Of a stretch of DNA of 64,000 bases, positions 21,923-51,663 are shown in pieces. The notes under the pieces are model-generated. The model was not told the DNA's origin. It did not search any database and worked only from the letters and a program-made list of their open reading frames with translations. The first letter of the stretch is position 1. Every line of letters begins with the position of its first letter. This DNA is from Sphingomonadales bacterium Ga0077559 (GTDB taxonomy: Bacteria; Pseudomonadota; Alphaproteobacteria; Sphingomonadales; Sphingomonadaceae): the NCBI GenBank assembly GCA_001464315.1, contig LNFK01000034.1, positions 40,428-104,427 of the forward strand, read 5' to 3'. A program made the position numbers and the translations under genes.

Positions 21923-22501
21923 TTATCCACCAGCCGCATTTGCCTTCGACCGGCGTCGCCATTTCGAACTGATCCACCAACGCCAGAACCAGGCGGCCAG
22001 CACATAGCCGATCGCCGCGGCGACAACAGAGATGATCGCAAGGCCGGCAACACCCTCGATAATCGCGGTGGGCGCTTCGGAGAATATCCAGTCAGTCCAC
22101 GCCGACAAGGGTGCGCCGGTTTCGATCAGTTCCAGAAATTTGCTGGACCCCCCGCCAAGCTGCAGTACCGAATTGCCGACATATACTGACCCGGCAAGGA
22201 TGAACGGAGTAGTGGCGGGCATGCTCAAAAACGTCATCGCCGCGCCTATCGGGATATTGGCACGAAACGGCAATGCTAACAGCGCCACGCCCGCAATCTG
22301 GACGCCAGGAATAAGCAGAAAAATTCCGACGAGCAGGCCGAGCGCCACGCCGCGCGGCACCGAGCGGCGCGTGAAGCGCCATAATGCCGGATGGAACACG
22401 CGCTTAGCAAATGGACGCAGAAAACGGCTGCGTTCGAAACTGTCGCGCGTCGGGGCCTGCTTGTGCATCCAGGCGCCCAGTTTGTTCCGTGGCGTCTTCA
22501 T
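21923..22501 (-). CDS. DUF2062 domain-containing membrane protein
   Basis: [23 protein letters not shown] and [19 protein letters not shown] pattern of DUF2062. Confidence 0.8.
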
Positions 22502-22980
22502 CCGCGATCCCGCATGATTCGTCCCTGCTCGCGTTTCCAATCGCGCTCCTTCTCGGTGGCCCGTTTATCAGGGGCTTTTTTGCCCTTGGCGAGCGCCAAT
22601 TCTACCTTTGCACGACCACGGCCGTTAAAATAGACCGACAGCGGAACCAAGGTCATGCCATCCCGCGAGACCGCAGCGTGCATCTTGTTAATCTCGCGGA
22701 CATTAAGGAGCAATTTACGAGGGCGCTTTGGTTCGTGATTGAACCGGTTGCCATGGCTGAATTCAGGGATATTGGCGTTGATCAGCCAGACGCCGTCGGC
22801 CTTCACCTCAGCATAGCTCTCGGCAATCGAACCTTCGCCAAAACGCAAAGATTTGACCTCAGTGCCAGTGAGCATGATCCCGGCCTCATATTTGTCCTCG
22901 ATGTAAAAATCATAGCGTGCGCGCCGGTTCTCGGCGACGGTTTTGACTTTATTAAAAGCTTCGGGCTTGGGACGCGCCAT
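22498..22980 (-). CDS. smpB: SsrA-binding protein SmpB
   Basis: [48 protein letters not shown]. Confidence 0.96.
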
Positions 22981-44806: not shown

Positions 44807-46051
44807 GTGGCACTTTCAAATTGGCAAAGCTATGAGCTTTGGATGCATAGCCTGCCAGCCCATGAACGAGTGATATTGGACCGCATCGAGCATATTATCA
44901 TGCTCGAACAAGTGCAGTCGTGGGCCGCGGTCAACAGCGGTTCGAATAATCTGCAGGGTCTTGCAGCCACCGCTCAATTGCTCGCTAATGCCTTTTCAGC
45001 CTTGCCGGGCAACTTGGCATTGATTGACCCCGAGCCCGTTGAAAAAGTAATGGCCGACGGCTCCGTAGAAATAGTAAAGCACGGACAGCATTTACTGGTG
45101 ACCGTTCGTCCCGAGGCGCAGACGCAACTGCTATTTACGGGCCATATGGACACCGTATTTCCCGCCGATCACAGCTTCCAGAATCAACGCTGGCTCGAGG
45201 ACGGCATACTCAACGGCCCCGGTGTCGCAGACATGAAGGGCGGCATCGCAGTCATGCTCGCTGCGCTGCAGGCCGCAGAAACATCGCCCGATTTTACGCA
45301 TGTCGGATATCAGGTTCTGATCAACAGCGATGAGGAAGTTGGATCGCCGTCATCGGCAGCGCTGATTGCACAAATCGCGCAGCATAAGCTGGCGGCGTTG
45401 ACCTACGAACCCGCGCTTCCCGATGGCACATTGGCTGGCGAACGCGGCGGTAGCGGTAATTTCTCGATCATTTTTACCGGCAAAAGCGCACACGCCGGTC
45501 GCAATCCGCAAGACGGACGCAATGCGTTGCTGGCCGCCGCCGATCTGGCGCTCCGCCTCAAAGCGCTGACCAGAGAAGGCCTGTCGGTCAACCCTGCCAA
45601 AATCGAAGGTGGCAGCCCTAATAATGTTGTGCCCGACCACGCCATATTGCGCGTCAACTTCCGGCCGCGTACGCCGCAAATTGTCACCGAAACTGATGCG
45701 CTTTTCCGGCACTTGGTGGCCGACATTGAACGCGACCATGAGGTTCACGCGCACGTCCACGGCAGCTTTGGCCGCCCGCCCAAGGCGATTGATGCGGGCG
45801 CAGCAAAACTGTTCGACCTCGTCAAACAATGCGGCGCAGAACTTGGCCTGTCTATCGCGTGGAAATCGAGCGGCGGGGTATGCGATGGAAATAACATCGC
45901 GGCCTGCGGCGTGCCAGTGGTTGACACGATGGGCGTTCGCGGCGGCAATATCCACAGTTCGGAAGAGTTTCTGATTACCGAAAGTCTCGTCGAGCGCGCC
46001 CAGTTATCGGCGCTGACCATCATGCGGATTGCCGCCAAAGGAACTTTATGA
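44807..46051 (+). CDS. M20 family metallohydrolase (carboxypeptidase G2/ArgE-like); start uncertain
   Basis: FTGHMDTVFPADH, GPGVADMKGGIAVMLAAL, NSDEEVGSPSS; stop overlaps astA start. Confidence 0.9.
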   Translation: MALSNWQSYELWMHSLPAHERVILDRIEHIIMLEQVQSWAAVNSGSNNLQGLAATAQLLANAFSALPGNLALIDPEPVEKVMADGSVEIVKHGQHLLVTVRPEAQTQLLFTGHMDTVFPADHSFQNQRWLEDGILNGPGVADMKGGIAVMLAALQAAETSPDFTHVGYQVLINSDEEVGSPSSAALIAQIAQHKLAALTYEPALPDGTLAGERGGSGNFSIIFTGKSAHAGRNPQDGRNALLAAADLALRLKALTREGLSVNPAKIEGGSPNNVVPDHAILRVNFRPRTPQIVTETDALFRHLVADIERDHEVHAHVHGSFGRPPKAIDAGAAKLFDLVKQCGAELGLSIAWKSSGGVCDGNNIAACGVPVVDTMGVRGGNIHSSEEFLITESLVERAQLSALTIMRIAAKGTL

Positions 46052-47079
46052 CGTTTATCATTCGCCCCGCAAGCATGGACGATGTGCAGCCGATTTATGA
46101 GATGGCCAAAAGGACAGGCGGCGGATTTACGAACCTACCGCCCGACCGCAAGGCGCTGACCGCGAAGTTGGAAAAATCAGCCGCCGGATTTGCCCGCGCG
46201 GAAGATACCGTCAATGACGACCTGTACGTTTTCGTGCTGCAAAACACCCAAACCGGCGAGGTGCGCGGCACATGCCAAATTTTCGGGCATGTTGGCCAAA
46301 AATGGCCATTTTACAGCTACCGGATCGGCGCGCTGACCCAGCATAGCGTCGAGTTGGACCGCACCTTTCGCGCCGACATATTGAATCTATCGACCGACCT
46401 AGAAGGCACGTCCGAAGTTGGCGGGCTGTTCCTGCACCCCGGCGAACGCGCTGGCGGACTTGGCCTACTGATTGCGCGCAGCCGCTATATTTTTATCCGC
46501 AACCACCGCGCACGCTTTGCTGACCGGACCTTGGCTGAACTTCGCGGCGTGATCGACGAGGCGGGCGGTTCGCCATTTTGGGACGGTGTGGCGGGTCGGT
46601 TCTTCGGTATGAGCTTTCAGGAAGCCGACGAATTCAACGCCAAATTCGGTAACCAGTTCATTGCCGACCTGATGCCCAAACATCCCGTCTACATCGCCAT
46701 GCTCAGCGAAGCCGCGCGCCATGTCATCGGCTTACCTCACCCTTCGGGTCGCGCCGCAATGCGGATGCTTGAGGAAGAAGGTTTTTCGTGGGAAAATTAT
46801 GTCGATATTTTCGACGGCGGCCCGACGATGACTGCGCGCACTGACCAGATCAGAAGCATTCGTGAAGCCAAGGAATCGGCTATTGTCGAGATATCTGACG
46901 CGCTGGGTGACCACAAAAAGGGCGAAAAAATGCTTGTTTCCTCAGGCAGGATGGCAAGTTTTAAAACCGCCTACGGCTGGGTCGAACTACGGGAAGGCGG
47001 GATTGCGATTGATCCGGTGAGCGCCAAAGCACTGAGGGTCGATGTCGGAAGCAGTATCACTCACGTGGCGCGGTGGTGA
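46048..47079 (+). CDS. astA: Arginine N-succinyltransferase
   Basis: MTFIIRPASMDDVQPIYEMAKRTGGGFTNLPPDR; FLHPGERAGGLGLLIARSRY; PFWDGVAGRFFGMSFQEAD. Confidence 0.94.
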   Translation: MTFIIRPASMDDVQPIYEMAKRTGGGFTNLPPDRKALTAKLEKSAAGFARAEDTVNDDLYVFVLQNTQTGEVRGTCQIFGHVGQKWPFYSYRIGALTQHSVELDRTFRADILNLSTDLEGTSEVGGLFLHPGERAGGLGLLIARSRYIFIRNHRARFADRTLAELRGVIDEAGGSPFWDGVAGRFFGMSFQEADEFNAKFGNQFIADLMPKHPVYIAMLSEAARHVIGLPHPSGRAAMRMLEEEGFSWENYVDIFDGGPTMTARTDQIRSIREAKESAIVEISDALGDHKKGEKMLVSSGRMASFKTAYGWVELREGGIAIDPVSAKALRVDVGSSITHVARW

Positions 47080-47082
47080 CGA

Positions 47083-48336
47083 ATGGCTCTCGTTGAAATC
47101 AACTTTGACGGTATTATTGGCCCGAGCCACAATTACGCAGGCCTAAGCCTGGGCAATATCGCATCATCAAGCAACGCGGGCGCGGCTTCGCAACCGCGTG
47201 CGGCGGCATTACAAGGCGTCGAAAAAATGCACGCCAATTTGCGGTTGGGTCTGGCGCAGGGCTTTTTTATGCCGCTGGATCGGCCAAACACGGCTTGGCT
47301 GGCTGGCCTTGCTACGGATATGGAACATGCCGAACCGCATATCCGCGCGGCCGCCTTCTCAGCCTCGGCGATGTGGGCGGCCAATGCTGCCACCGTTTCC
47401 CCCGCCCCTGATACAGCAGACGGTCGGTGCCACTTGTCCGCTGCCAATCTGCTTACCATGGCGCACCGGAGCCATGAATGGCACGGAACACTTGCCCAGC
47501 TAAAGCTGGCCTTTTCCGACGAGCAGCATTTTGCCGTCCATGCTGCGGTGCCGCCGCCCTTTGGCGACGAGGGCGCAGCCAATTTTATGCGGCTTTGCCC
47601 CTCGCACGGTGAGGCTGGCATCGAGATTTTCGTATACGGCAAGGCAGGTGGCCCCTTCCCCGCCCGCCAGCATATTGAATCGTCAAAGGCCATCGCGCGT
47701 GCACACCGGCTTGATCCGGCAAAGACCTTGTTCGTGCAGCAATCCGAAATCGCGATAGCCGCAGGCGCATTCCACAATGATGTCGTCGCGGTCGCCAACG
47801 AACGCGTGCTGTTTACGCATGAACAGGCGTTTGAATTTCCCGATCAAACCTACGCCGATATCAAACGTCTGATGCCCGATGCGGAAATCATCATTGTGCC
47901 TGCTGACCACATCAGCCTTGCCGACGCCATTCAAAGCTATTTGTTCAACGCGCAGTTGGTGACGCTGCCGACCGGAGGAATGGCGCTGATACTGCCCAGC
48001 GAGGCCGAGGCCAACGAACGTGTCTGGAGCTGGTTAAGCGAAATGGTCGCAGGCAATGGCCCGATCCGTGAACTGGTTCCCGTCGATGTCCGGGAATCAA
48101 TGGCCAATGGCGGCGGCCCCGCCTGCCTGCGGCTTCGCGTGGTCGCGGATCCCGCGACGGTCGATGCGCGATTTATCGCCAACGAATCAAAGCTCGACCA
48201 GATTGCCGGGGTAATCGCGGCGCATTGGCCTGAAACTATTACACCCGACCAACTAGGAGACGCGAGGCTGATCCGTCAGATTCAAAATGCACGCGCGGAG
48301 CTCTTGCAAGCGTGTGATCTGACCGAACTCAAATAA
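47083..48336 (+). CDS. astB: N-succinylarginine dihydrolase
   Basis: EINFDGIIGPSHNYAGLSLGNIASSSNAGAASQPRAAALQG; FHNDVVAVANERVLF; NGGGPACLRLRV. Confidence 0.96.
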   Translation: MALVEINFDGIIGPSHNYAGLSLGNIASSSNAGAASQPRAAALQGVEKMHANLRLGLAQGFFMPLDRPNTAWLAGLATDMEHAEPHIRAAAFSASAMWAANAATVSPAPDTADGRCHLSAANLLTMAHRSHEWHGTLAQLKLAFSDEQHFAVHAAVPPPFGDEGAANFMRLCPSHGEAGIEIFVYGKAGGPFPARQHIESSKAIARAHRLDPAKTLFVQQSEIAIAAGAFHNDVVAVANERVLFTHEQAFEFPDQTYADIKRLMPDAEIIIVPADHISLADAIQSYLFNAQLVTLPTGGMALILPSEAEANERVWSWLSEMVAGNGPIRELVPVDVRESMANGGGPACLRLRVVADPATVDARFIANESKLDQIAGVIAAHWPETITPDQLGDARLIRQIQNARAELLQACDLTELK

Positions 48337-48376: not shown

Positions 48377-48655
48377 ATGACCCCAGCTTTTCCTGAACTG
48401 GCACAGGGATTGCTCTATATTTTCTTAACTATGAAAAAAATAGCGCGCCTGTTCACAATCAAGACCAAATTGGAGGTCTTCCTTATCACCTACGCGCTTG
48501 GTTTGGGCGCGGTAATGCGGGGGCAGGAATATATGCAACAATATCCCGGCAATATCGGAAAGGTTTTTTTCGTGCTGTGTACAGGCGCCGTTTTCATGGC
48601 CTCAGCAAAAATGCTCGAAGCAGTAGAATTTCAAAGCGCTTTCGGGGTGGATTAG
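48377..48655 (+). CDS. Small inner-membrane protein of unknown function
   Basis: 92 aa, two hydrophobic stretches; FLITYALGLGAVMRGQEYMQQYPG; real start probably an internal ATG. Confidence 0.6.
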   Translation: MTPAFPELAQGLLYIFLTMKKIARLFTIKTKLEVFLITYALGLGAVMRGQEYMQQYPGNIGKVFFVLCTGAVFMASAKMLEAVEFQSAFGVD

Positions 48656-48741
48656 GACCAAGGATTCTGTTGCTCGGCGCGTATTTGCTGACGCATTTTC
48701 GAACCGAAAAACCGGTTTCCTTTTTTTGAAAATGCTTGGGT

Positions 48742-49080
48742 GGGGGGCTTCTGTTGCTCGGCGCCCCCCGGGCCGCCGTAACTATTCTGTTGCCCGGCCA
48801 GTCCAGCCGCGTTCTTTTAGTGTAAGTTCAGACCGTGAGGCCCAAAATTACGCTGCGAGAGCAAGTGCTTCGTTATCGTTTGCACCTATTGGTTGTGAAC
48901 CATTTCACGGCTTATTCATGCCGGGCAAAAACAATGCTTTTGAACACACGTCGATCCTAGTTCAGCCCCTTCAGGACCCCTGAATATCAGGGATTTTGGT
49001 GGAGCTGCCGGGTACCGCCCCCGGGTCCGCTGTATCTATTACACATCGCCATTTATCGCCATAGCCGGGCGAACCCGGCA
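48742..49080 (-). ncRNA. ssrA: Transfer-messenger RNA, circularly permuted two-piece alphaproteobacterial form (outer ends approximate)
   Basis: Minus strand: acceptor piece ...GGACCCGGGGGCGGTACCCGGCAGCTCCACCA ending at 48997; intervening segment 48970-48996; coding piece starting GGGGCTGAACTAGGATCGACG at 48969; tag GCAAACGATAACGAAGCACTTGCTCTCGCAGCGTAA (ANDNEALALAA*) at 48883-48848. GGGGCTG pairs with CAGCTCC of the acceptor stem. Confidence 0.93.
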
Positions 49081-49124: not shown

Positions 49125-49457
49125 TTAAAGACCCTGCATATTCCGACTTTCAGCCGGAATATGCACCACCAACCCATTGAGTTCGGGCGTCAGGACGATC
49201 TGGCAGGACAAGCGGCTGGTCCGCCTTGCGCCGCTGGCTAGATCGAGCATATCTTCTTCGTCTTCGACCGCGCAGGGGAGTTTGTCGAACCAGTTCTTGT
49301 CGATGATCACATGGCAGGTCGAGCACGCCATCTGTCCCTCGCACGTGCCCTCGAGCGGCTGACCAGCGGCTTGCGCGACTTCGAGCAGGCCCTGCCCTGC
49401 TTCGGCTTGCACTTCTTGCCGTTCGCCATCAGCGCTGATGAAGGTCACATTGATCAT
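49125..49457 (-). CDS. 2Fe-2S ferredoxin
   Basis: GTCEGQMACSTCHVII cluster-binding motif; DLASGARRTSRLSCQIVL. Confidence 0.94.
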   Translation of the reverse strand: MINVTFISADGERQEVQAEAGQGLLEVAQAAGQPLEGTCEGQMACSTCHVIIDKNWFDKLPCAVEDEEDMLDLASGARRTSRLSCQIVLTPELNGLVVHIPAESRNMQGL

Positions 49458-50500
49458 AACATCGCCTCTGCAGCCCAGTTAATTGTCGCAGCAGCAATGT
49501 CAATTTCTTCAGGTGTCGTATAGCGGCCAAAGCCAAGACGAATTGATGATTTCGCCTGTGCGTCAGTAAGGCCAATCGCGCGAAGGACATGGCTCGGGCG
49601 GCCTGAACCGCTGGCGCAGGCAGAGCCTGCCGAAAAGGCAAGATTGCGGCATTCTGACATCAGCCGCCCTACATCGACACCGTCGCGGCGAATATTGAGA
49701 TTGCCTTTGTAGCGATGGGTGAGCGGGCCATTGATCGTCCAGTCGGCGAATGCGGCAATAGCGCGGTCCCACAGCGCCGAAACATGCGCTGCGTCTGCTA
49801 CCATACGCTCCGCAGCCAGTTTCGCCGCTGCCCCAAAGCCTGCGCATAAAGCAGGCGATAGTGTTCCCGAGCGAAGCCCTTGTTCTTGGCCCCCGCCATG
49901 CATCTGCGGTTCCAATTTTATCCCGTCACGCACCCAAAGCGCGCCGATGCCTTTGGGGCCAAATATTTTATGCGAAGAAATCGCGATCATGTCAGGGCCA
50001 TCGGGAATAGGCATCCGGCCATAGGCTTGGACAGCGTCGCATAAAAACACTCCGCCTTGGGCATGCGCGGCTGCGGCGAGTTCGGCGACGGGCTGTATGG
50101 TTCCGATTTCGTTATTGATGAGCATGACTGCCGATAGTCCGGAGCTGATATAACCTATATCGGCATTTCCGTCGGAGCCGACCGCAAAGCTGGTTCCGCC
50201 GAGATGCTCCACGCAATCCAGAACCGCAGCATGCTCGGTTGCGGCGGCAATGATCGGCATGCCGGACCCTTTGATCGCCAGATTGATCGACTCAGTCGCA
50301 CCACTGGTAAAAATCACCCGCCCGCCGCTCGGCAATAGCGCCGCGACCTGCTCGCGCGTGACCTCGACCGCGGCCGCCGCCGCCCTGCCCGCTGCATGGA
50401 CGCTGTGCGGATTGGCGAAGCCGCCCTTGAGCCAAGGCTCCATCGCGGCAAAGGCTTCGGGCGCGAGCGGTGTCGTCGCCTGATAATCGAGATAGATCAT
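49454..50500 (-). CDS. Cysteine desulfurase family protein (copy 1)
   Basis: MIYLDYQATTPLAPEAF; SSHKIFGPKGIGAL (PLP Lys); FSAGSACASGSGRPSHVL (Cys loop). Confidence 0.93.
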   Translation of the reverse strand: MIYLDYQATTPLAPEAFAAMEPWLKGGFANPHSVHAAGRAAAAAVEVTREQVAALLPSGGRVIFTSGATESINLAIKGSGMPIIAAATEHAAVLDCVEHLGGTSFAVGSDGNADIGYISSGLSAVMLINNEIGTIQPVAELAAAAHAQGGVFLCDAVQAYGRMPIPDGPDMIAISSHKIFGPKGIGALWVRDGIKLEPQMHGGGQEQGLRSGTLSPALCAGFGAAAKLAAERMVADAAHVSALWDRAIAAFADWTINGPLTHRYKGNLNIRRDGVDVGRLMSECRNLAFSAGSACASGSGRPSHVLRAIGLTDAQAKSSIRLGFGRYTTPEEIDIAAATINWAAEAML

Positions 50501-51558
50501 ACCGCCTTGGCCCGCTTTGAAATCGAGCGCCACACGTCCAGGAAATGCATGATATCAGCTTCGCAGGTTTCCGGTCCAAAACTGACGCGAATGACCTCGG
50601 ACGCCGCAACGGCATCCCAGCCCATAGCCCCCAGCACGTGGCTCGTCTTTAGCGTTCCTGAGGAACAAGCGCTTCCTGCCGAAACCGCGATACCTGCCAT
50701 ATCGAAATTGATAAGCTGGCTTGATGCGGCAATGCCGGGCATCCGGTAGCTGCCGATGGTTGCAAGCCTCTTGCTGGCAGCAGCGACGATCTCGCCGCCC
50801 TCGGCCAGCAATGCGTCTTCCAGCACAGTTCGAAGTTTTTTGTTCTGTTCGAGCCAGCCAAAACCCTTCTCCAGCGCTGCACCAAAACCAATCGCGGCGG
50901 GAAGATTTTCAGTCCCGCGCCGGTATCCCTGTTCCTGACCGCCCGTCGGCTGCAACAAACCCAGATTGCGCGTCAGCAACGCGCCAATGCCAGGAGGCCC
51001 GCCCAGTTTATGCGCGGACACCGCAATGAGGTCTGCATCCGGCAACGCAAGCTTGCCTGCGCTTTGCGAGCAATCTGCGAACAAAGTACCCCCCGCTGCC
51101 TTCACCGCATCATAAACCGCATCCAAGGGCTGGATAACGCCAGTTTCATTGTTGACCGACTGGACGGCATATCGGACCGGTTCTGTGATTGCCGACAACT
51201 CGACATATCCGTTTTCATCGACGCGCAAGTGCTCAGCCGATGCAACACCCAGCACCGCGTCATGTTCGACCGCGCTGGCAATCGCCTCGCCTCCGCGCAA
51301 GGCAATCGCAATGGCTTCGCTTGCGCCGCTCGTGAGGATAACCTCGCCATCCCAACCCAGCACTGCCGCGATCCGTTCGCGCGCATCCTCAAGCGCTGCA
51401 CGCGCCGCGCGCCCTTCATTATGCGGTGACGACGGGTTCGCCCAATATTCCAAGCCTTCCATCATCGCCGCACGCGCCGCGCCCACCACCGGCGTAGTTG
51501 CGGCATGATCGAGATATATGCGGGGGCGCGGAGGCATAAACCTGTGCAAGCTTTCCAT
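50497..51558 (-). CDS. Cysteine desulfurase family protein (copy 2)
   Basis: RIYLDHAATTPVVGAAR; SAHKLGGPPGIGALLTR; VSAGSACSSGTLKTSHVLGAMG; overlaps copy 1 by 4 bp. Confidence 0.92.
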   Translation of the reverse strand: MESLHRFMPPRPRIYLDHAATTPVVGAARAAMMEGLEYWANPSSPHNEGRAARAALEDARERIAAVLGWDGEVILTSGASEAIAIALRGGEAIASAVEHDAVLGVASAEHLRVDENGYVELSAITEPVRYAVQSVNNETGVIQPLDAVYDAVKAAGGTLFADCSQSAGKLALPDADLIAVSAHKLGGPPGIGALLTRNLGLLQPTGGQEQGYRRGTENLPAAIGFGAALEKGFGWLEQNKKLRTVLEDALLAEGGEIVAAASKRLATIGSYRMPGIAASSQLINFDMAGIAVSAGSACSSGTLKTSHVLGAMGWDAVAASEVIRVSFGPETCEADIMHFLDVWRSISKRAKAV

Positions 51559-51663
51559 GACAGTTGCGAAAATCGTGACTGCTTCTATATAGCGCTTCCA
51601 CTTCCTGCAAAGCCCGAACCATCGAGCACTGCGCGCCAATAGTCTTTAGAATCGAAAACACAC

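What the first reader, a model, noticed from the sequence alone, without database searches (positions are those of the whole stretch)
48742..49080. Permuted two-piece tmRNA (ssrA) on the minus strand, not visible in the ORF track
Reading the minus strand gives an acceptor half (...CCGGG-GGCGGTA-CCCGG-CAGCTCC-A-CCA, with an atypical T-loop GGCGGTA) upstream of a coding half (GGGGCTGAACTAGGATCGACG...). GGGGCTG pairs with CAGCTCC over 7 bp (one G-U). The tag reads ANDNEALALAA*. Circular permutation of ssrA in Alphaproteobacteria is established; the exact tag and the processing sites here are read from sequence or inferred. smpB is about 26 kb away in the same window.
Basis: partly seen in the sequence, partly recalled or inferred. 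Interest (0 to 1): 0.65.

Follow-up and report, generated by a model that had tools for sequence, protein, structure and literature searches.

The report
Two-piece tmRNA with doubled terminal pseudoknot
The finding is a genuine, ordinary split ribosome-rescue RNA gene of the kind known from alphaproteobacteria; the only unexpected part is that in this bacterial family the small RNA knot at the end of its message half has been copied in tandem, a lineage trait we found no description of.

Summary
Window 49080-48742 (minus) is a circularly permuted ssrA. It matches Rfam alpha_tmRNA at 221 bits (E 1e-62) and tmRNA_permuted at 139 bits, and ARAGORN independently reads the tag ANDNEALALAA. It is the only tmRNA in a genome rated 99.8% complete; every weaker one-piece hit coincides with a tRNA gene. 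smpB (22498-22980, minus) is confirmed. The 'atypical' T-loop GGCGGTA is normal for the family, and the acceptor stem has the G3-U alanine identity pair. As such the gene is already-known biology: 116 of 121 relatives have it.

Other Alphaproteobacteria have one (0 of 55 sampled have two). In this family 103 of 106 anchored genomes have two. Both copies show compensatory changes. Rfam's model stops after the first. A decayed third copy lies at 48680-48662, and some relatives carry one or two further copies. I read this as a lineage-specific duplication of the terminal pseudoknot, probably within the mature coding RNA and perhaps protecting its free 3' end. Processing, expression and function are untested.

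The parts
48997..49080 (-). Acceptor piece of the permuted tmRNA: 5' hairpin (helix 11-like, GCCGGG-TTCG-CCCGGC at 49079-49064), D-like region, T-arm with loop GGCGGTA, acceptor 3' strand CAGCTCC, discriminator A and CCA. About 84 nt (C. crescentus chain B is 83 nt, PMC1168896). The 5' end is inferred.
   Evidence: Rfam RF01849/RF04321, sequence, T-loop and acceptor survey, PMC1168896
48970..48996 (-). Intervening segment (27 nt) between CCA and the coding piece, removed in the two-piece model
   Evidence: Position between CCA and GGGGCTG; relatives' median length 28 nt. Removal is inferred.
48742..48969 (-). Coding piece of the permuted tmRNA, from acceptor 5' strand GGGGCTG to the end of the second terminal pseudoknot (228 nt). 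The 3' end is inferred.
   Evidence: Rfam RF01849 to 48775; covarying pseudoknot to 48742
48848..48883 (-). Proteolysis-tag reading frame, ANDNEALALAA plus stop TAA
   Evidence: ARAGORN, Rfam alignment; the same or near-identical tag in relatives
48778..48809 (-). Terminal pseudoknot copy 1: S1 CGGC/GCCG, S2 GGACU/AGUUAC with a bulge, loop GGCAACAGAA
   Evidence: Sequence; 22 compensatory cells against a shuffled maximum of 10 in relatives; control scan
48742..48775 (-). Terminal pseudoknot copy 2: S1 CGGC/GCCG, L1 CC, S2 GGGGGGC/GCCCCCC, loop AGCAACAGAA; outside the Rfam model
   Evidence: Covariation in 37 distinct relatives; Rfam match ends between the copies in 27 of 27 family loci checked
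48662..48680 (-). Third, decayed copy (GCGCCGAGCAACAGAATCC, 18 of 19 identical to copy 2) without recognisable pseudoknot stems
   Evidence: Repeat family; pairing check fails; the exact 14-mer occurs nowhere else in the genome
22498..22980 (-). smpB, SsrA-binding protein (partner)
   Evidence: NCBIfam NF003843 E 2.3e-60 and TIGR00086 E 3.1e-52

Best explanation
This is the cell's only ssrA, in the circularly permuted alphaproteobacterial form. The transcript is probably cut by tRNA-processing enzymes (inferred) into an acceptor RNA (about 49080-48997) and a coding RNA (48969 to about 48742), which re-associate through the 7-bp acceptor stem and the connector helix. Charged with alanine (G3-U pair) and bound by SmpB, it rescues stalled ribosomes and appends ANDNEALALAA for proteolysis (inferred from family). 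In this lineage (family Sphingomonadaceae in the broad sense) the terminal pseudoknot of the coding RNA has been duplicated in tandem, so the coding RNA probably ends in two H-type pseudoknots. Most likely role of the second copy (inferred): the terminal cap of the free 3' end of the coding RNA against 3'-5' exonucleases and a folding aid, with copy 1 becoming an internal, bulged version.
For: Rfam 221 and 139 bits; ARAGORN tag; sole tmRNA in the genome; 116 of 121 family genomes, 61 of 61 order genomes and 107 of 115 class genomes hit; smpB present; G3-U and T-loop conserved. Duplication: pair in 103 of 106 anchored family loci against 0 of 55 class loci. Copy 2 forms S1 in 94.5% against 16% shuffled and S2 of at least 5 bp in 94.5% against 5%; 98.8% of cells paired, 10 of 11 pairs with double changes, 0 of 500 shuffles as high, collapsing when slid by one base. 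L1 is 2 nt in 91 of 101. Copy 1 covaries too. In a sister family one genome has one copy and another has two in the same context (L202, L197). Of 75 tandem-motif hits inside ssrA found in 84,980 species, 72 are named Sphingomonadales.
Against: No RNA data: processing sites, 3' end and two-piece state are not shown here. MFE folding of the last 100 nt is not better than shuffles (z -0.03), though that program cannot make pseudoknots. Copy 1 in the window itself has weaker S2 pairing than copy 2. The exonuclease-cap role is a guess.
Confidence: 0.9

Rival explanations
1. The gene is a standard permuted tmRNA whose coding RNA ends after pseudoknot copy 1, as in the Rfam model. Copy 2 and the third copy are trailer sequence, for example a processing or transcription-termination hairpin that is trimmed away.
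For: Rfam's model ends between the copies in 27 of 27 loci checked; copy 2's S2 is a very GC-rich stem.
Against: Copy 2, not copy 1, keeps the exact class-wide architecture (4-bp S1, 2-nt L1, 6-8-bp S2, CAACAGAA loop) and the following CAC(T) end; its pseudoknot stem S1 covaries, which a simple hairpin would not need. No T-run follows it, and no terminator-like site was found there.
Confidence: 0.2
2. The tandem copies are members of a mobile or dispersed palindromic repeat that inserted beside ssrA and have nothing to do with tmRNA.
For: Extra copies at about 82-98 nt spacing in about ten family genomes, some within tandem units of about 94 nt sharing CGACGGTCCTCGCC.
Against: In the whole genome the exact motif exists only beside ssrA. 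The motif is the terminal tmRNA pseudoknot in other Alphaproteobacteria that have a single copy, and the pair is almost universal in the family.
Confidence: 0.03
3. Copy 1 is not a duplicate but the ordinary upstream pseudoknot (pk2 of other tmRNAs) that has converged on the same loop.
For: Descriptions of the C. crescentus coding chain place one pseudoknot upstream of the terminal one (PMC1168896).
Against: Copies 1 and 2 share loop GGCAACAGAA, a 4-bp CGGY S1 and, in many genomes, a 2-nt L1. Single-copy genomes of sister families carry the single pseudoknot in copy 1's upstream context, and L197 shows a clean 36-nt tandem repeat.
Confidence: 0.1

Closest known systems
Permuted two-piece tmRNA of Alphaproteobacteria (Rfam RF01849 alpha_tmRNA; Caulobacter crescentus tmRNA)
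   Same: Gene order acceptor-IVS-coding, CCA encoded, G3-U, T-loop GGCRGTA, ANDN...LAA-type tag, terminal pseudoknot with CAACAGAA loop
   Different: Terminal pseudoknot present twice in tandem; most described two-piece tmRNAs have only PK1 and PK2 in the coding piece (PMC3985003), or pk1-pk3 with pk4 reduced to a helix (PMC1168896)
Cyanobacterial one-piece tmRNA with pk4 replaced by two small tandem pseudoknots pk4a/4b (PMC1168896)
   Same: Precedent for tandem small pseudoknots in a tmRNA
   Different: Different pseudoknot, different lineage, one-piece RNA; there it replaces a larger knot, here it duplicates the terminal one
Beta- and cyanobacterial permuted tmRNAs (RF01850, RF01851)
   Same: Also permuted; covered by RF04321
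   Different: Separate lineages; the window matches the alpha model best

Membership tests
Alphaproteobacterial permuted tmRNA (RF01849) | Covariance-model match above the gathering score (50 bits) | tested here: met
   221.2 bits over model 1-355
Alphaproteobacterial permuted tmRNA (RF01849) | Permuted order: acceptor half with CCA upstream of acceptor 5' strand plus tag | tested here: met
   Sequence; 27-nt IVS
Alphaproteobacterial permuted tmRNA (RF01849) | tRNA-like domain: 7-bp acceptor stem with G-U third pair, T-arm | tested here: met
   G-U in 102 of 106 family loci
Alphaproteobacterial permuted tmRNA (RF01849) | Tag reading frame ending in a hydrophobic -LAA/-IAA signal | tested here: met
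   ANDNEALALAA*; relatives mostly ANDNEALAIAA or ANDNEALALAA
Alphaproteobacterial permuted tmRNA (RF01849) | smpB in the genome and no other ssrA | tested here: met
Alphaproteobacterial permuted tmRNA (RF01849) | Transcript processed into two base-paired RNAs | not testable with these tools
   Needs northern blot or RNA-seq
Alphaproteobacterial permuted tmRNA (RF01849) | Single terminal pseudoknot in the coding piece (class-wide pattern, not part of the Rfam definition) | tested here: not met
   Two tandem copies in the window and in 103 of 106 family loci; 0 of 55 class loci. This marks a variant rather than excluding membership.

The most novel reading that the evidence does not exclude
In Sphingomonadaceae (broad sense) the mature coding RNA of the two-piece tmRNA carries two covarying terminal pseudoknots made by tandem duplication of one unit. 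The unit keeps multiplying downstream in some genomes, so the number of 3'-terminal pseudoknots is an evolvable property that tunes stability or turnover of the coding RNA.
Probability: 0.45. Interest if true: 0.4.

Novelty: new variant of a known kind. Interest (0 to 1): 0.27.

Why it matters
The gene itself is textbook biology and adds one more confirmed example. The tandem terminal pseudoknot is a clean natural experiment on what the free 3' end of a split tmRNA needs. It is almost fixed in one large family and absent from the class sample, both copies keep their base pairing, and the current model (Rfam RF01849) stops before the second copy, so the 3' ends of these ssrA genes are probably annotated about 35 nt too short. 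That also matters for mapping genomic islands that use ssrA ends.

Tried and rejected
Looked for a one-piece ssrA elsewhere in the genome: none; all seven weak RF00023 hits coincide with tRNA genes. Tested whether the T-loop is unusual: no. Tested whether the GCAACAGAA copies are a dispersed genome repeat: no. Looked for tandem-motif tmRNAs in viral contigs: 117 pattern matches, none in an ssrA context by my filter. Single-strand MFE folding of the tail was uninformative. Mao 2009, Keiler 2000 and Sharkady 2004 are not held, so prior description of the duplication cannot be excluded.

Full report
CHECK OF THE OBSERVATION. Rfam's alpha_tmRNA model matches 49118-48775 end to end with 221.2 bits (gathering score 50, E 9.6e-63), and the newer tmRNA_permuted model matches 49060-48848 with 138.7 bits. 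ARAGORN independently calls a permuted tmRNA with tag ANDNEALALAA. The acceptor stem GGGGCTG/CAGCTCC is 7 bp with a G-U third pair, which is the alanyl-tRNA synthetase identity pair described as completely conserved in tmRNA (PMC3985003). It is G-U in 102 of 106 relatives' loci. The T-loop called atypical, GGCGGTA, is normal here: GGCAGTA or GGCGGTA in 98 of 106 family loci and 43 of 55 class loci.

The genome (2.86 Mb in 78 contigs, 99.78% complete) has one alpha tmRNA and one permuted tmRNA hit, both this one. The one-piece model RF00023 gives seven sub-threshold hits (at most 36 bits, cut-off 47), and all coincide with tRNA genes. smpB is a clear NCBIfam equivalog at 22498-22980 minus. The gene is general in relatives: 116 of 121 family genomes, 61 of 61 order genomes and 107 of 115 class genomes have a match.

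ANATOMY. Acceptor piece about 49080-48997; the 5' end is placed by the helix 11-like hairpin that begins the C. crescentus acceptor chain of 83 nt (PMC1168896). Intervening segment 48996-48970, 27 nt (family median 28). Coding piece from 48969. Tag frame 48883-48848. The gene follows a 2Fe-2S ferredoxin gene on the same strand (49125-49457) and converges with a 92-aa open frame (48377-48655). Best matches of the locus among the named genomes fetched are Sphingorhabdus and an unclassified Sphingomonadales MAG, so the host is a sphingomonad.

GCAACAGAA occurs three times on the minus strand just after the tag: 48793-48785, 48757-48749 and 48673-48665 (shuffled expectation for the whole window 0.5). 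The longer repeat GCGCCGAGCAACAGAAKCC links the last two. In the whole genome the exact 14-mer GCCGAGCAACAGAA is found only here, and one of the one-mismatch matches is the first repeat.

In other Alphaproteobacteria the motif occurs once, as the loop of a terminal H-type pseudoknot, for example CGGU-UC-GGGGGGC-ACCG-GGCAACAGAA-GCCCCCC. A 4-bp S1 forms in 98% and S2 of at least 5 bp in 96% of 51 class loci. By position and its 4-bp helix this is, I infer, the terminal knot called pk3 in the C. crescentus model (PMC1168896); other authors count only PK1 and PK2 in two-piece tmRNAs (PMC3985003).

In the window's family a tandem pair 34-39 nt apart is present in 103 of 106 anchored loci, allowing one mismatch in the motif. 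Of the other three, L037 shows the pair and L105 (their anchors were misplaced), and L123 could not be judged. In the class sample 0 of 55 have a pair. Across the order, families f117, f118 and f121 have single copies. Families f115, f116, f119 and f120 include pairs in some genomes. Within f120, L202 has one copy and L197 has a clean 36-nt tandem repeat in the same upstream context, which is what a tandem duplication predicts. A scan of 84,980 named species for the tandem motif returned 120 rows before its limit. Of these, 75 are in ssrA: 72 named Sphingomonadales, two not resolved to order, and one Paracoccaceae MAG whose second copy lacks S2.

IS THE SECOND COPY REAL STRUCTURE? For copy 2 in the family, S1 forms in 94.5% of loci against 16% in local shuffles, and S2 of at least 5 bp in 94.5% against 5%. 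L1 is exactly 2 nt in 91 of 101. On 37 distinct 34-nt units the named pseudoknot has 98.8% of cells paired, 10 of 11 pairs with changes on both sides and 93 such cells. No shuffle of 500 reaches these three values, and sliding partners by one column drops pairing to 53-56%. Units were chosen with a 7-bp S2, so the S2 percentage is biased upward. S1 was not used for that choice and still pairs in 96.6% with double changes in all four pairs. Copy 1 has the same S1 and loop, but its S2 carries a two-base bulge; 28 distinct units give 22 double-change cells against a shuffled maximum of 10. The Rfam match ends between the two copies in 27 of 27 family loci checked, so copy 2 is outside the current model.

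FURTHER COPIES. About ten family genomes carry a third or fourth copy, usually 82-98 nt further on. In some, a unit of about 94 nt is repeated with copies that look more alike within a genome than between genomes (L018, L023, L024, L068). These have shorter stems and are partly unpaired. The window's third copy (48680-48662) has the loop but no recognisable stems.

MECHANISM. Shown: sequence, structure conservation, sole ssrA, partner smpB. From established knowledge: the permuted precursor is thought to be cut by tRNA-processing enzymes, the pieces re-pair, and C. crescentus two-piece tmRNA works in trans-translation (PMC3985003). Inferred: the coding RNA ends at or just after 48742 with two knots. 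Unlike one-piece tmRNA, its 3' end is free, and tmRNA turnover in Caulobacter involves the 3'-5' exonuclease RNase R (PMC3985003), so a second terminal knot could add protection or folding robustness. The only other tandem small knots that I found described are pk4a/4b of cyanobacterial one-piece tmRNA (PMC1168896).

VERDICT. The reported finding is correct and already known in kind. The duplicated terminal pseudoknot is a lineage-specific variant that I found no description of in the papers I could search, but three key papers could not be read. Interest is modest.

Noticed in passing
window 48377-48655 (+): 92-aa open frame convergent with ssrA, no Pfam or NCBIfam match; similar sequence appears downstream of ssrA in several relatives (seen by eye in L009, L018, L026).
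   Followed up: partly
L018, L023, L024, L068, L073, L088, L089, downstream of ssrA: Tandem units of about 94 nt, each with a CAACAGAA hairpin and a CGACGGTCCTCGCC-like stretch; in several of these genomes the copies look more alike within a genome than between genomes.
   Followed up: partly
L207 (family f116), about 230-310 nt after the acceptor CCA: Three tandem terminal-knot-like units (GCGCCGGGCAACAGAA, GCGCCGGGCAACAAAA, GCGCCAGGCAACACCA), apparently an independent expansion.
   Followed up: no
window 44807-48336 (+): M20 peptidase-like protein, AstA-family arginine N-succinyltransferase and AstB-family succinylarginine dihydrolase genes in a row (arginine succinyltransferase pathway).
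   Followed up: no
window 49125-51639 (-): Ferredoxin of ISC type and two adjacent class-V aminotransferases (cysteine desulfurase-like) upstream of ssrA on the same strand.
   Followed up: no
G215 (class sample), C5:288509-288849: A second, weaker alpha_tmRNA hit (72.8 bits) besides the main one in this genome; possible duplicate, degraded or foreign ssrA.
   Followed up: no
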